NCBI GenBank assembly: GCA_017937125.1
Contig: JAGBEH010000001.1
Span: forward strand, 682,001-746,000
DNA from: Alistipes sp.
GTDB taxonomy: Bacteria > Bacteroidota > Bacteroidia > Bacteroidales > Rikenellaceae
Direction: 5' to 3'
DNA length: 64,000 nt
Under the pieces are notes generated by a model. It made no database searches and had not been told where the DNA came from. It was given only the letters and a program-made list of their open reading frames with translations. Of the stretch, positions 29,942 through 55,128 are shown one piece after another (position 1 is the stretch's first letter; every line of letters begins with the position of its first letter). A program made the position numbers and the translations under genes.

Positions 29942-30559
29942 CTATTTTTGAGGTTTGTAATGTTGCAGCATAAGCAGCGTTTTGCTGCGTATCGCACTCG
30001 ACTGTCGTATCATCTCCTCGGTCGAGGGATCATCCTTGATATAGCGGCAGATGCGTTCGCGGAAACTGTCTTTGGGGTTGCGATTCATTCCGCCGGCGTA
30101 GTACGGTTCGTCGGTGCCCCGTTTCATCAGAAAGCAGCATACCTCCGACTGGCTGAGCGAACCTCTGGTCTGAATGTCCTCTATCCCGCCGTTCGCCGAA
30201 ATGAAATAGCCTTTTTGTGAAAATATGTATACGGTAATGTACGGGGTCTCGAAATATACGCGGCACCATCCCGACTTTGTCGGTACTATTTTGTGCTTCC
30301 GTTCGGGCTGCCGCGGGTGGCAGCATACTATAGAATCCGTTTCGTCGAATTTGTATGTCTCCGTTTTCCTGTTTTTCCCGTAGGCGTTGCGCAGGATTTT
30401 CAGCGAGGAGCGGTTTTTGGGCAGTTTTATCCTGTCCGTATCCTTGCACTCTGCGGTAGTGCCGTTTTTCAGATATACGGTCCCGATGACCGACGATGCG
30501 TAAGCCGTGTGTGCAGCCAGCAGCAAAGCGATAGTAATCAGGTAAGATTTGGCATTCAT
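29942..30559 (-). CDS. Secreted protein of unknown function
   Basis: 205 aa with a signal peptide (about 1-21, ending AYA). The mature N-terminus, GTVYLKNGTTAECKDTDRI, again looks like a short strand-rich module opening, similar in layout to the neighbour at 29263. Cysteines in CKDT, CCHPR, WCRVY and VCCFLM may form disulphides. No family recognised. It is the first gene behind a Bacteroidetes promoter whose spacer contains nine G in a row, so its expression could vary between cells by slippage. Confidence 0.7.
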   Translation of the reverse strand: MNAKSYLITIALLLAAHTAYASSVIGTVYLKNGTTAECKDTDRIKLPKNRSSLKILRNAYGKNRKTETYKFDETDSIVCCHPRQPERKHKIVPTKSGWCRVYFETPYITVYIFSQKGYFISANGGIEDIQTRGSLSQSEVCCFLMKRGTDEPYYAGGMNRNPKDSFRERICRYIKDDPSTEEMIRQSSAIRSKTLLMLQHYKPQK

Positions 30560-30582: not shown

Positions 30583-30613
30583 CAAAATTACCCCCCCCCT
30601 CGAAAAATGCAAA
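30583..30613 (-). promoter_or_regulatory. Promoter with G9 tract in spacer
   Basis: On the minus strand TTTG (complement of 30610-30613), a 19-nt spacer, and TAATTTTG (complement of 30583-30590) directly abutting nine G. Both elements and the spacing match the Bacteroidetes consensus. The predicted transcript starts about 15 nt before the ATG at 30559. Change in tract length would change the spacer. Confidence 0.7.
30591..30599 (-). repeat. G9 mononucleotide tract in promoter
   Basis: Nine consecutive C on the plus strand, G on the minus, within the promoter spacer of the secreted-protein gene. Confidence 0.9.
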
Positions 30614-50882: not shown

Positions 50883-52423
50883 GACTTAAGATACGGTTTA
50901 CGGTGTTTCTGTCGTGTGCATTCCTGTCGGTTGCGGCTCAACAGCCGCATGCCCGTATTGCAGGGCTCGAAAGCAATGCCGAGTATGTCTCCCTGATACG
51001 CGAGGACGAAGCTTTGGCGCGCAGTATCGACTCTCTTGCCGATTTGGCAGCCGGCCTGCGCGAAAAGCTGGACGAGGATGACGGCAAGCGCAAGGAGCGC
51101 TCTGCTGCGATACTGAAACTCGAAGGCGAACTGTTCGCCGTGCGGAACAACCGCAGCCGTTTGTCGGGACGCATAAATACTATCGAGCAGAATTGGATAT
51201 TGTCCCATATGTCGTCGGCATCCGTTAGAGACAATGTGCGGGAGACGTCCGATGTGGATGGTTCTTCATCGGCGGATAATATGCCTGAATATGCCGATCT
51301 CGTGCGCAATGCCCGTTTTGCGGCCTCGCTTCCGAAGGCCGATTATGCCGCGTTGCTGAAGGCGCAGCGCAATGAGCGGACAGCTGTGCGGCTGCTCTCC
51401 GAGTTTGCGGCCGCCTATAATGAAGCGGTATTGTTGAAAACGGAGTATGAAGCGGCGGGAACTGAATCTGCGGCGGACTCGTTGATGACGCTGTTTCTGG
51501 AAAAACAATCGGACTGCACCGTTATCTCCGATTCTTTGTCGTCGGTGTGGAGCAATACATTCGATAACAAGATGTATATATATGATCTGCTGTTCGATAA
51601 GGACGGCCGCGATGATGTACTGTCCAAAGCCGAGCAGAGCAGGTTCGCAATGCGTCGAAATATCGATCGGTTGCGGGGGACATATGCATCGGATGCGGTT
51701 ACGGAGTATTATTTCCAGAAGCGTTGTGTCGTGGATTACGAAATAGATGCCGCCGTAATCGCGGGGTTGAACAAGGCGGCGGATTCGTTGCGTGCCGTAC
51801 GAAAGTCCCTCGACGGGTTGCAATACAAGTACGATAAGGTGTATATTGCGCGACGCTATTTCCTTGACTACGAGCCTCTGCAATTTTCGACGCAGTATGT
51901 ATATAACGCTAAGAATCCCGTACCGGAATGCGTGGTATACGAACACGGCGAAATGTATCGTATAAAGTTGGGCGAATTCGCCGCCAAACAGCCCGTGTCG
52001 AAATTCCGCGGTTTGGAGCCCGTATCTTATTTGAAGGCCCCGAACGGGGCGTGGCGGTATTATGCCGGCGGATATGCGTCGGCGGATGAGGCGGTAAAGC
52101 CGTTGCAGACCGTACGGCGCCTCGGGTTCCGTAATGCCGATATTGCCGCTTGGATAGATGGAGCGTATGCGGATAATGCTGCGGAACTGGCGGAGCTGAA
52201 ATCGAAAACGTTCCTTGTGGAGATTTCGGGAACGGAGGCGCTGTCGGATGATGTTCGGAATGCCGTATTGCGCAATACTCCCGAAGCGAACATTTCGCGT
52301 GCGGGAAAAAACACGTTTGTCGTCGGGAGTTTCAGGTCGCGGGAAGAGGCCGATCTGGCCGTTCGCAATATAATCGCGGCTGACGGCTCGTTGTCGGCGA
52401 CGATCAGGGAGCAAGGCAGATAG
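50879..52423 (+). CDS. Secreted coiled-coil protein with SPOR-like repeats
   Basis: 514 aa. Signal peptide (ending VAAQ), then long helical and probably coiled-coil stretches (about 30-110 and 150-330), and a C-terminal part (about 355-510) that reads as two SPOR-like modules: YRIKLGEFAAKQP...WRYYAGGYASADEAV and FLVEISGTEALSD...TFVVGSFRSREEADL. SPOR modules bind denuded peptidoglycan; the sequence match is moderate. ATG at 50879 overlaps the trkH stop (ATGA); the ATG at 50870 would add three residues. The terminator at 52442 ends the operon. Confidence 0.7.
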   Translation: MRLKIRFTVFLSCAFLSVAAQQPHARIAGLESNAEYVSLIREDEALARSIDSLADLAAGLREKLDEDDGKRKERSAAILKLEGELFAVRNNRSRLSGRINTIEQNWILSHMSSASVRDNVRETSDVDGSSSADNMPEYADLVRNARFAASLPKADYAALLKAQRNERTAVRLLSEFAAAYNEAVLLKTEYEAAGTESAADSLMTLFLEKQSDCTVISDSLSSVWSNTFDNKMYIYDLLFDKDGRDDVLSKAEQSRFAMRRNIDRLRGTYASDAVTEYYFQKRCVVDYEIDAAVIAGLNKAADSLRAVRKSLDGLQYKYDKVYIARRYFLDYEPLQFSTQYVYNAKNPVPECVVYEHGEMYRIKLGEFAAKQPVSKFRGLEPVSYLKAPNGAWRYYAGGYASADEAVKPLQTVRRLGFRNADIAAWIDGAYADNAAELAELKSKTFLVEISGTEALSDDVRNAVLRNTPEANISRAGKNTFVVGSFRSREEADLAVRNIIAADGSLSATIREQGR

Positions 52424-52441
52424 CGTATGCAAGCGGCGGGC

Positions 52442-52476
52442 AAAAAAAGAATCGGCAGTTCTGCCGATTCTTTTTT
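52442..52476. terminator. Bidirectional terminator
   Basis: 12-bp stem (52447-52458 and 52461-52472) with A-run on the left and T-run on the right, between the convergent SPOR-like and lipoprotein genes. Confidence 0.8.
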
Positions 52477-52494
52477 GTATGATGTTCGCGACTG

Positions 52495-53508
52495 CTATTC
52501 GTACAGTTCGCCGCTGTATGACCCTTTTACCGTGTGGTTGTATCCGTCCTTGAGTTCGAACGAGATGTTGTAGATGTTATCTGCGTGCGTAATGTCTACC
52601 GTACCGTTGCACAGGGCGGCTTCGTCCTGCCCTTGGAAATACCAGCATCCGAAAAGGTATATGCCGCTCAACATTCCGGGAACGAGCGTATATGCGGGGA
52701 TTTCATTACCGCTCAGTGCCATCTCGTATTTGCCGTCCGGAATTTCGGTGGCACCTACGGGAATATTGAGGTATAATGTCACGCCGTTGCCTTTGCCGAG
52801 AAGCGACACTATGTCGAAATTGTCGTCGCCCAATACGATGACTGCTATATCCGACTTTGCGCCTTCGAACAGGCTCTCGCCCATCAACTCGACATAGCCC
52901 TGGCTTAAGCCCGTTACGGCTCTGTCCTCCGTCAGCGTGGTGTACATACCCTCTTCGGTCCTGTTGTGGAAAATGATTTTCCCTACATAGGCGTATTCGT
53001 AGGATTCGTCGTTCGCGAGTTTCAAGTCGCAGTTGATTTCATAGACGCCCTGACTGTATTTGAGATTTATCGACCCGCCGGTTATCGGTGCCTGCACGGT
53101 CTCGCCGTTTATCATACGAGTCAAATAAGTGGCATCTTCGTTGTTGATAGCGAATGTCATATTGCCGCCGTTTTCCGAACCCGCGTACTCGCCTGATACG
53201 AGTGCCGCGTAGTCGGGATTCGCGGACAGCGGTGCTTGGAACGAGATGCAGAGAATGTAGCCGTTTTCGTCGCTGAGATCTCCGAAGTCGTCTACTTCCT
53301 GATCCTCGGGATAGAAGTTGATCCAATAACTGCCGTACTCCTCATTGTCGTCGGCACCTCCGTAATAAGCTTCGGCTACGACTCCTTCCGTCAATACCGG
53401 AGGTGTGATTTCACCCCCCCCCTGATTTCCGCCGTTGTCGGAATTTCCGCTTTCGCAGGATGCGAATCCGAGGGCGCATACTGCGATCGCAAACAAGAAT
53501 TTCTTCAT
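52495..53508 (-). CDS. Surface lipoprotein with in-frame G9 tract
   Basis: 337 aa. Signal peptide with lipobox FASC (Cys18), followed by a Glu/Ser/Asp/Gly-rich tether (CESGNSDNGGNQGGGEI), the type of lipoprotein export signal that sends Bacteroidetes lipoproteins to the cell surface. The rest looks beta-rich with three or so repeated strands ending in NGETV/NGGNMTF-like turns; no named family recognised. Codons 30-32 are encoded by nine consecutive G. A loss or gain of one G would stop translation almost at once (see findings). A -7 element TATATTTG lies on the minus strand at 53539-53546. Confidence 0.75.
   Translation of the reverse strand: MKKFLFAIAVCALGFASCESGNSDNGGNQGGGEITPPVLTEGVVAEAYYGGADDNEEYGSYWINFYPEDQEVDDFGDLSDENGYILCISFQAPLSANPDYAALVSGEYAGSENGGNMTFAINNEDATYLTRMINGETVQAPITGGSINLKYSQGVYEINCDLKLANDESYEYAYVGKIIFHNRTEEGMYTTLTEDRAVTGLSQGYVELMGESLFEGAKSDIAVIVLGDDNFDIVSLLGKGNGVTLYLNIPVGATEIPDGKYEMALSGNEIPAYTLVPGMLSGIYLFGCWYFQGQDEAALCNGTVDITHADNIYNISFELKDGYNHTVKGSYSGELYE
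53414..53422 (-). repeat. G9 mononucleotide tract inside lipoprotein gene
   Basis: Nine consecutive G on the minus strand, coding Gly-Gly-Gly just after the lipidation site. Nearby frames are closed: ten G puts a TGA directly after the tract, eight G gives a TGA eight codons later. Confidence 0.9.
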
Positions 53509-53538
53509 AATGATCTATTGTATTAAAAAGTTACATTG

Positions 53539-53546
53539 CAAATATA
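53539..53546 (-). promoter_or_regulatory. -7 element before lipoprotein gene
   Basis: TATATTTG on the minus strand, 31 bp before the ATG at 53508; -33 not clear. Divergent from the nfeD promoter. Confidence 0.5.
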
Positions 53547-53630
53547 AAGTAAAAATCTTTAATATCTGTTATTCCGATGTGCGTTTCGGCGCAATTCGAT
53601 GATTCGGGGTGCGAAAATAAGCGGGTTTTC

Positions 53631-53661
53631 TTGTAAATCTCGCTTCTAATGCGTATCTTTA
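53631..53661 (+). promoter_or_regulatory. Promoter of nfeD-floA
   Basis: TTG at 53631-53633, a 20-nt spacer and TATCTTTA at 53654-53661, 22 bp before the nfeD ATG. Confidence 0.65.
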
Positions 53662-53682
53662 ACCGATCAATACGGTATTATT

Positions 53683-54150
53683 ATGGTTCTGATTATTGTA
53701 CTTATCGCTTTGGGCGTATTGTTCCTGCTCGCGGAGCTTCTGTTGCTGACCGGTTCCGCCATAGGCGGCATATTGTCGCTCGTATGTTACGGCAGTGCCA
53801 TATATATGTCCTATCGTAGTTTCGGTGTCGTCACCGGAACCGTAGTCGTTGCGGTGATTCTGGTATTGTCGCTCATCGCCACGGTGGTGTCGTTGCGTGC
53901 GAAGACCTGGCAGCGTCTTATGCTGAAGCAGGAGATCGACTCGTCGAGTATGGAGCGTCCCGACCGTAAACTGAATGTCGGGGACAGCGGCATTACCCTT
54001 TCGCGTCTGTCGCCTATGGGAAAGGTCGAGATAGGCGGGGAGATTTACGAGGCGAAATCGCTCGATGCTTATGTGGAGCCGAAATGCGGCATCGAGGTGG
54101 TCGGCTTCGAGAATTTCAATGTGATAGTTAAAAAAACATCTAAAAAATAA
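53683..54150 (+). CDS. NfeD-family membrane protein
   Basis: 155 aa. Three or four hydrophobic segments in the N-terminal half (about 2-75) and a soluble C-terminal OB-fold domain (GKVEIGGEIYEAKSLDAYVEPKCGIEVVGFENFNVIVK), the short NfeD form. NfeD proteins partner with flotillin-type proteins in membrane microdomains; here the next gene, 6 bp downstream, is floA, which supports this. Confidence 0.9.
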   Translation: MVLIIVLIALGVLFLLAELLLLTGSAIGGILSLVCYGSAIYMSYRSFGVVTGTVVVAVILVLSLIATVVSLRAKTWQRLMLKQEIDSSSMERPDRKLNVGDSGITLSRLSPMGKVEIGGEIYEAKSLDAYVEPKCGIEVVGFENFNVIVKKTSKK

Positions 54151-54156
54151 ACAGCT

Positions 54157-55128
54157 ATGTATTTTCAAATCGGTACGATCGCGATAGTCGTGTTCCTGTC
54201 GCTGATTGCGTTGTGGTTGGTCTTCTATTTTATTCCGGTCGGATTGTGGTTCTCGGCGCTGGTGTCGGGAGTGAGAATCAACCTTCTCCAGCTGGTGCTT
54301 ATGCGTTGGCGCAAGGTTCCGCCTTCGGTTATCGTTTCGTCTATGATCGAGGGGACCAAAGCGGGTCTGAACCTCAATCCCAACGAGCTCGAGGCGCACT
54401 ATCTTGCGGGCGGAAACGTGACTAATGTGGTGCACGCCCTCGTGTCGGCGCAGAAAGCGAGCATTATGCTCGATTTCAAGATGGCTACGGCCATCGACCT
54501 TGCGGGCCGCGACGTATTCGAGGCCGTACAGATGTCGGTGAATCCGAAGGTCATAAATACTCCTCCCGTCGCAGCTGTGGCCAAAGACGGTATCCAGCTG
54601 ATCGCAAAGGCACGGGTTACAGTACGCGCGAATATCAAGCAGCTCGTCGGCGGTGCGGGCGAAGAGACGGTGCTGGCACGTGTCGGCGAGGGCATAGTTT
54701 CGTCCATAGGCTCGGCGGATTCGCATAAGACGGTGCTTGAAAATCCCGATTTCATTTCGCGTGTCGTGCTCGAAAAGGGTCTCGATGCAGGTACGGCGTT
54801 CGAAATCCTCTCTATCGATATTGCCGACATAGATGTCGGAAAGAATATCGGTGCGCAATTACAGATGGATCAGGCCGATGCCGATAAGAATATAGCACAG
54901 GCCAAGGCCGAGGAGCGTCGTGCTATGGCGGTGGCGCTCGAACAGGAAAACAGAGCCAAAGCCCAGGAGGCGCGTGCGAAAGTCATCCTTGCGGAGGCCG
55001 AGGTCCCCTTGGCTATGGCGGAAGCTTTCCGTAACGGCAATCTCGGGATTATGGACTATTACAAGATGAAGAACGTGATGGCCGATACGACTATGCGCGA
55101 GTCGATCGCCAAGACGGAGAAAAAATAG
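54157..55128 (+). CDS. floA: Flotillin-like protein FloA
   Basis: 323 aa. N-terminal membrane anchor (about 6-40), an SPFH/band-7-type domain with the [34 protein letters not shown] and [31 protein letters not shown] blocks, and a C-terminal Ala/Glu-rich helix. This is the FloA (formerly YqfA) family that scaffolds lipid-ordered membrane zones. Paired with nfeD upstream; the terminator-like hairpin at 55184 follows. Confidence 0.95.

What the first reader, a model, noticed from the sequence alone, without database searches (positions are those of the whole stretch)
53405..53470. G9 tract in the tether of a surface lipoprotein, with stops in both other frames
Seen: nine G encode Gly30-Gly32 just after the lipidated Cys. 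With ten G the next codon is TGA; with eight G a TGA follows after eight codons. So any single-base slip switches the protein off. Known: in-frame homopolymers with this design are contingency loci in many host-associated bacteria. Inferred: this lipoprotein, likely exposed on the surface, may be phase-variable. Two such tracts in one window, both next to exported proteins, fit a common theme.
Basis: partly seen in the sequence, partly recalled or inferred. Interest (0 to 1): 0.72.

Follow-up and report, generated by a model that had tools for sequence, protein, structure and literature searches.

The report
Poly-G switch in an Alistipes lipoprotein
A run of nine Gs near the start of a gut bacterium's predicted surface-protein gene looks like a slippage switch that could turn the protein on and off, and it is one of 56 such runs in the same genome, many of them at genes for surface structures.

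Summary
A G9 run at 53414-53422 (minus strand) encodes Gln29-Gly32 in the tether of a 337-aa predicted lipoprotein (52495-53508). One extra G gives TGA at once; one fewer gives TGA after 6 whole codons. Early stops in other frames are ordinary here; the run itself is not. In this Alistipes draft genome, runs of exactly 7/8/9/10/11 G number 2/6/47/8/1, against 1.4-2.1 expected G9 start positions (66 seen). In 23 of 26 hand-picked Alistipes genomes exact G9 outnumbers G8 and G7. The 56 tracts avoid intact ORF interiors; 5 of 56 fill the spacer of a TTTG-N18/19-TAnnTTTG promoter, the window's second tract among them, and a relative of that gene in another species has the same design. In 4 of 9 loci read closely a gene is split into two frames at the tract. 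Genes include SusC receptors, fimbrillins, ECF sigma factors, glycan genes. Against: this gene's orthologues lack the tract, the tether is naturally Gly-rich, and length variation in a population could not be tested. Best reading: a poly-G contingency locus, a known kind, in a large phasome I did not find described for Alistipes.

The parts
53414..53422 (-). G9 tract, gene nt 87-95, codons 29-32 (Gln-Gly-Gly-Gly)
52495..53508 (-). gene of the 337-aa predicted lipoprotein (P0001), in frame in this assembly
   Evidence: no Pfam family
53455..53508 (-). signal peptide and lipobox, codons 1-18, ending in Cys18
   Evidence: read from the translation; weak NCBIfam lipoprotein match to residues 1-22, below cut-off
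53389..53454 (-). flexible tether, about codons 19-40, holding the tract
   Evidence: AlphaFold2 pLDDT under 50 for model residues 1-32, which are protein residues 2-33
53411..53413 (-). TGA met at once if the tract gains one G
   Evidence: phase arithmetic
53391..53393 (-). TGA met after 6 whole codons if the tract loses one G
   Evidence: phase arithmetic
53539..53546 (-). TATATTTG, -7-like promoter element of the gene; no tract in this promoter
   Evidence: read; consensus from PMC7366714 (passages)
52443..52476 (.). 16-nt perfect inverted repeat with a 2-nt loop between two convergent genes, terminator-like
30591..30599 (-). second G9 tract of the window, inside a promoter spacer
30583..30613 (-). 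TTTG-N19-TAATTTTG promoter whose spacer ends in the G9
29942..30559 (-). 205-aa predicted exported protein driven by that promoter; no Pfam family

Best explanation
The G9 tract is a translational contingency switch. Slippage during replication lengthens or shortens it; a single-base change puts the folded domain out of frame with the signal peptide and Cys18, and a stop codon ends the protein in or just after the tether, so the lipoprotein is OFF until a compensating slip. The tract lies in the disordered linker, where a Gly more or less should be harmless. It is one of 56 tracts of nine or more G that together look like a poly-G phasome of this Alistipes. Shown: the sequence, the frame consequences, the genome-wide excess with a peak at exactly nine, placement near gene starts and in promoter spacers, and genes split in frame at sister tracts. 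Inferred: slippage, reversible switching, surface exposure, benefit.
For: Exact run lengths 7/8/9/10/11 = 2/6/47/8/1 in the genome against 1.4-2.1 expected G9 start positions, 66 seen. Exact G9 exceeds G8 and G7 in 23 of 26 hand-picked Alistipes genomes. Only 23 of 56 tracts lie inside an intact ORF where 87% is coding; 12 of the 23, or 10 of 21 after dropping two doubtful ones, lie in the first 60 codons. 5 of 56 fill a consensus promoter spacer, 0.04 expected, and one relative of the second tract's gene in another species (L101) has a G9 in a 19-nt consensus spacer too. 4 of 9 loci read closely are split in frame at the tract. Tethers or signal regions of other lipoproteins carry the same design (L079; L013, L072, L075 with C9). 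The tract lies where the model is disordered. A peak near nine fits the shift from insertion bias at G8-9 to deletion bias at G10-11 reported for C. jejuni (as cited in PMC4085013, passages).
Against: Orthologue L083 (59% identity, same neighbours) and relatives L033, L034 and L035 have no run over 5 in the first 60 codons; L034 and L035 have three glycines in the tether written with other codons, so Gly3 there needs no switch. No read data and no second strain of the species: within-population variation untested. Flanking bases are biased in this genome, which slippage alone does not predict. In genome G022 none of 85 tracts lies in a consensus promoter spacer.
Confidence: 0.7

Rival explanations
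1. Chance codon choice: three glycines in a naturally Gly-rich tether happened to be written GGG GGG GGT after CAG; nothing switches.
For: GGG is an ordinary Gly codon here (11.8 per 1000 codons); two of four relatives with a readable tether have Gly3 there without a long G run; orthologue L083 lacks the tract.
Against: Chance gives 1.4-2.1 G9 start positions per genome, 66 are seen; exact G7 runs number 2, although Markov start-position counts imply about 31 by difference, so a G9 by chance without many G7 and G8 is unlikely.
Confidence: 0.15
2. Mutational equilibrium without benefit: Alistipes replication and repair drive G runs to nine, and they persist where frameshifts do little harm.
For: The peak is at exactly nine whatever the frame or gene, in 23 of 26 genomes; tracts are absent from most orthologues; flank bias.
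Against: Five promoter spacers hit with consensus spacing, 0.04 expected; the same promoter design at a related gene in another species; gene classes differ from control genes, 20 of 40 against 1 of 18.
Confidence: 0.12
3. Sequencing or assembly artefact: true run lengths are compressed or averaged to nine, and split genes are consensus errors.
For: G000 is an unnamed draft of 12 contigs, platform unknown; homopolymers are error-prone on some platforms (recalled).
Against: The same peak appears in 23 of 26 separately held genomes; A and T runs in the window show no such peak; promoter spacing is 19 nt with G9 and with G10.
Confidence: 0.03

Closest known systems
Poly-G contingency loci of Campylobacter jejuni and Neisseria (PMC4965091, search listing; PMC4085013, abstract and passages)
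   Same: G runs of about 8-11 in reading frames or promoters of surface genes; the C. jejuni strain NCTC11168 abstract counts 29 loci with polyG/polyC of seven or more
   Different: Those have measured switching; here nothing is measured. Here lengths are sharply peaked at nine and the organism is a gut commensal genus of Bacteroidota
Bifidobacterium breve sortase-dependent pilus G-tract slippage (PMC9187656, abstract and outline)
   Same: Slippage at an intragenic G-tract of a surface structure in a gut commensal
   Different: Two pilus clusters in an Actinobacterium, measured by deep sequencing; here 56 tracts, unmeasured
Bacteroidales phase variation by DNA inversion (PMC12632263, passages)
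   Same: Surface proteins, SusC/D orthologues and polysaccharide genes as targets in the same order
   Different: Recombinase and inverted repeats there; no inverted repeat around this tract
Homopolymeric tracts near gene 5' ends as a general mechanism (PMC2831843, passages)
   Same: Tracts placed towards the start of genes, able to break the frame
   Different: That study found poly-A and poly-T overrepresented; poly-G of more than 2 bases generally underrepresented

Membership tests
Simple-sequence (poly-G) contingency locus | Tract longer than genome composition predicts | tested here: met
   66 G9 start positions against 1.4-2.1 expected; exact lengths 2/6/47/8/1 for 7 to 11
Simple-sequence (poly-G) contingency locus | Placed so that a one-base change alters expression | tested here: met
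   TGA at once or after 6 whole codons, before the folded domain; by itself not rare in this gene
Simple-sequence (poly-G) contingency locus | Tract length varies within a population or between strains | not testable with these tools
   one genome per species is held and no reads; orthologues of other species lack the tract
Simple-sequence (poly-G) contingency locus | ON and OFF expression states demonstrated | not testable with these tools
   needs clones; sister tracts show split frames in 4 of 9 loci read
Surface-exposed Bacteroidota lipoprotein | Signal peptide II with lipobox cysteine | tested here: met
   LGFAS-C18 read by eye; only a weak NCBIfam lipoprotein match, 20.5 bits against cut-off 50
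Surface-exposed Bacteroidota lipoprotein | Lipoprotein export signal after Cys (SDDDD-like in B. fragilis, K-(D/E)2 in C. canimorsus; PMC5080379, passages) | tested here: inconclusive
   ESGNSDN follows Cys; acidic and polar, but not the consensus
DNA-inversion phase variation of Bacteroidales | Inverted repeats flanking the promoter or segment | tested here: not met
   only a terminator-like repeat with a 2-nt loop in 52400-54200, minimum length 14

The most novel reading that the evidence does not exclude
Alistipes, a gut commensal genus, carries a genus-wide poly-G phasome held at exactly nine Gs. It acts both by reading frame (lipoprotein tethers, signal peptides, ECF sigma factors, receptors, glycan enzymes) and by the spacer length of Bacteroidetes promoters, with some genes under double control (L077, L060): a second phase-variation system beside the DNA inversions known in the order.
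Probability: 0.57. Interest if true: 0.78.

Novelty: new member of a known kind. Interest (0 to 1): 0.6.

Why it matters
[quoted passage not shown] A 2025 review of gut Bacteroidales (PMC12632263, passages) speaks of phase variation by DNA inversion, and the words slipped and homopolymer do not occur in its text. If these tracts switch, a commensal Bacteroidota genus has a repeat-driven phasome of a size comparable to that of C. jejuni (29 loci of seven or more in one strain, PMC4965091, search listing), with receptors, fimbriae, sigma factors and glycan genes among the targets, and strain studies of Alistipes would need to read tract lengths. The claim can be tested directly on existing isolate or metagenome reads.

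Tried and rejected
Rejected: 'stops in both other frames' as evidence, because early stops are the rule in this gene. Rejected: inversion control at this tract.

Second tract's gene in relatives: 15 of 179 other Alistipes genomes have a relative. I read the upstream regions of all 15. One (L101, genome G087, 40% identity) has G9 in a 19-nt TTTG/TAnnTTTG spacer; one (L099, genome G076) has a C9 in the leader instead; in the other 13 I saw no run of 7 or more within the stretch read.

Dropped: position statistics for G022 (85 tracts found in 79 stretches; 86 exact G9 listed). The simple gene caller picked what look like antisense ORFs in that genome, so its p-values are not used. G022 shows no promoter-spacer tract (0 of 85) and a weaker flank bias, so the promoter arrangement is not shown to be genus-wide. 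The 26 genomes were chosen by hand for completeness of 90% or more and mostly high counts, so '23 of 26' leans upward; G062, G029 and G018 do not show the peak. In the order, 14 of 147 genomes also have more G9 start positions than exact G7 or exact G8 runs. The contig end beside the site in G025 was not used as evidence. Of the 40 ORFs scanned, those of L067 and L068 may not be real genes (calls genes on the other strand there), and several lie 140-230 bases or more from their tract. The gene classes counted as surface, glycan or ECF were chosen after seeing the matches.

Full report
What is there. The window lies in an unnamed 2.16-Mb, 12-contig assembly of 90% completeness. The five records that a protein search of public genomes returned are all Alistipes, four MAGs and one record without that mark, so I treat it as Alistipes. 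Gene 52495-53508 (minus) encodes a 337-aa protein with a signal peptide ending LGFAS-C18, then the tether ESGNSDNGGNQGGGEITPP, then a folded domain. G9 at 53414-53422 spans codons 29-32. The AlphaFold2 model, from six sequences and starting at residue 2, has mean pLDDT 84; model residues 1-32 (protein residues 2-33) are under 50, and strands begin at model residue 42. So the disorder ends where the tract ends. No Pfam family matched; NCBIfam gave weak matches below cut-off; the PDB search gave no credible relative. Neighbours are a divergent NfeD/FloA pair and a convergent gene with a weak SPOR match, with a terminator-like repeat between.

Is it more than chance? In the window, runs of nine are mildly unusual. 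In the genome, overlapping matches to G7, G8 and G9 number 192, 128 and 66; exact lengths 7 to 11 number 2, 6, 47, 8 and 1 (for 7-9; for 10-11). Markov models fitted to the window expect 46-57, 8-11 and 1.4-2.1 start positions. So exact G7 is scarcer than expected (about 31 by difference, my arithmetic) and G9 start positions are 30-45 times more frequent: the runs form a class of their own. A and T runs in the window fall smoothly to 8.

Is it wider than this genome? All 180 Alistipes genomes searched, this one included, have at least one G9 match, from 1 to 219. Median density is 10.6 per Mb against 1.2 in 147 other genomes of the order, one of them of the same family; this genome has 30.6 (sizes rounded by the tool). 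In 26 Alistipes genomes chosen by hand (completeness 90% or more, mostly tract-rich) exact G9 exceeds G8 and G7 in 23; sums for exact G7, G8 and G9 are 363, 496 and 1534. In the 147 others the sums decline (exact G7 5723, exact G8 1347, G9 start positions 1218), though 14 of 147 show a G9 excess.

Where do the tracts lie? I fetched the surroundings of all 56 tracts of nine or more. With a simple codon-score caller, 23 of 56 lie inside an intact ORF although 87% of the window is coding (p 3e-16), and 12 of the 23 lie within the first 60 codons (p 3e-4). One of the 12 (L073) is really a split gene and one (L018) a doubtful 56-codon ORF; without them it is 10 of 21, p 0.002. 5 of 56 sit between TTTG and TAnnTTTG, four with 19 nt and one with 18 nt between, against 0.04 expected from window positions. 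This is the Bacteroides sigma-ABfr consensus (PMC7366714, passages). One of the five has G10 and still 19 nt. The window's second tract, 30591-30599, is one of the five. Of 15 relatives of its gene in other Alistipes genomes, one (L101, 40% identity) has G9 at another place inside a 19-nt TTTG/TATCTTTG spacer, one (L099) has C9 in the leader, and 13 show no run of seven or more in the upstream stretch read.

Which genes? 40 ORFs at or downstream of 40 of the 56 tracts were scanned in Pfam; 30 have a match at E 0.001 or better, a few of them below the curated cut-off. The target was scanned (no match); 15 tracts had no ORF scanned. They include four SusC-type TonB receptors, two ECF sigma factors, two Mfa-like fimbrillins, two DUF3575/OmpA proteins, six glycan genes (LicD, NTP_transf_5, two Polysacc_synt_2, DUF4422, a glycosyltransferase), two sulfatase-domain proteins, two DUF6562 proteins, one BspA-type and one BACON protein; also ordinary ones (pyruvate oxidoreductase, PspC, two M16 peptidases). 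Receptors, ECF, fimbrillin, DUF3575/OmpA, glycan, DUF6562, BspA and BACON make 20 of 40. A control of 18 window genes (every third of 57 called; 19 drawn, one set aside because it is the second tract's gene) gives 1 of 18, a sub-threshold OmpA match. The control is one region and the classes were chosen afterwards, so this is a contrast, not a measured enrichment. By eye, tracts follow lipoprotein-like cysteines in L079 (Gly), L013, L072 and L075 (Pro, from C9) as well as here; the script's stricter rule counted 3 in all.

Are any OFF? I read nine candidate tracts in all frames of the G strand, keeping pieces apart. In four the gene is split at the tract: L073 first tract (lipoprotein-like start of 69 codons in one frame, 616 codons in another), L030, L060 second tract and L077 second tract. 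At L030 the upstream piece matches DUF4422 positions 1-28 (E 0.0005, below cut-off) and the downstream piece positions 46-218. The other five (L025, L068 twice, L071, L078) were unclear. L077 and L060 each have one tract upstream and another inside the gene.

Evidence against. Orthologue L083 (59% identity, same neighbours) and relatives L033, L034 and L035 have no G or C run over 5 in the first 60 codons; L034 and L035 have Gly-Gly-Gly in the tether in other codons. The 64% relative's contig ends just before the site. So this tract is young or local, and Gly3 there needs no switch. Flanks are biased in this genome: A is the second base after the tract in 38 of 56, and TA follows in 22 against 3.9 scaled from G4-6 runs. 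In G022 the bias is weaker and no promoter spacer is hit, 0 of 85. Slippage alone does not explain the bias; AT-rich leaders may in part. I leave it open.

How it most likely works. Shown: the anatomy, the frame arithmetic, a genome-wide class of G9 runs, split genes at sister tracts. Inferred: replication slippage, reversible loss of the lipoprotein, surface exposure (the residues after Cys are not the published export consensus) and a role in meeting hosts or phages. The peak at nine fits the shift from insertion bias at G8-9 to deletion bias at G10-11 reported for C. jejuni, as cited in PMC4085013 (passages).

Known or new. The kind is known: poly-G contingency loci in Campylobacter and Neisseria, and a slippage switch in the gut commensal B. 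breve (PMC9187656, abstract and outline). For Alistipes or other Bacteroidales I saw no description of a homopolymer phasome in the listings of searches of an open-access library; most of those papers I did not open, and most subscription papers are not held. The gene is therefore a new member of a known kind; the genus-wide pattern is the part of real interest.

Noticed in passing
window 30583-30613 and L101 1124-1154: The same promoter design, TTTG and TAnnTTTG 19 nt apart with a G9 in the spacer, stands before related genes (40% identity) in two Alistipes species, with the G9 at different places inside the spacer.
   Followed up: partly
L012 and L064 (G000): Two different ECF sigma factors carry an in-frame G9 at about the same place, codons 33-38, just before the conserved ..DDIIQEVF / ..AEDIFHDAL stretch.
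   Followed up: no
L077 and L060 (G000): Two genes (a SusC receptor and a DUF3575/OmpA protein) have one G tract upstream and a second one inside the gene, and are split in frame at the second: possible double control.
   Followed up: partly
flanks of the 56 tracts (G000): Bases next to the tracts are biased (TA 22 and AA 14 of 56 on the 3' side; TC 16 and GA 14 on the 5' side), more than around G4-6 runs; unexplained.
   Followed up: partly
L076 (G000): Two G9 tracts about 130 bases apart have copies of a GGAACGGAGCAGG-like unit between them, next to a gene start.
   Followed up: no
G029 and G018: Two Alistipes genomes have their peak at exact G8 (47) or G7 (22) instead of G9, which might reflect different repair or assembly.
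   Followed up: no
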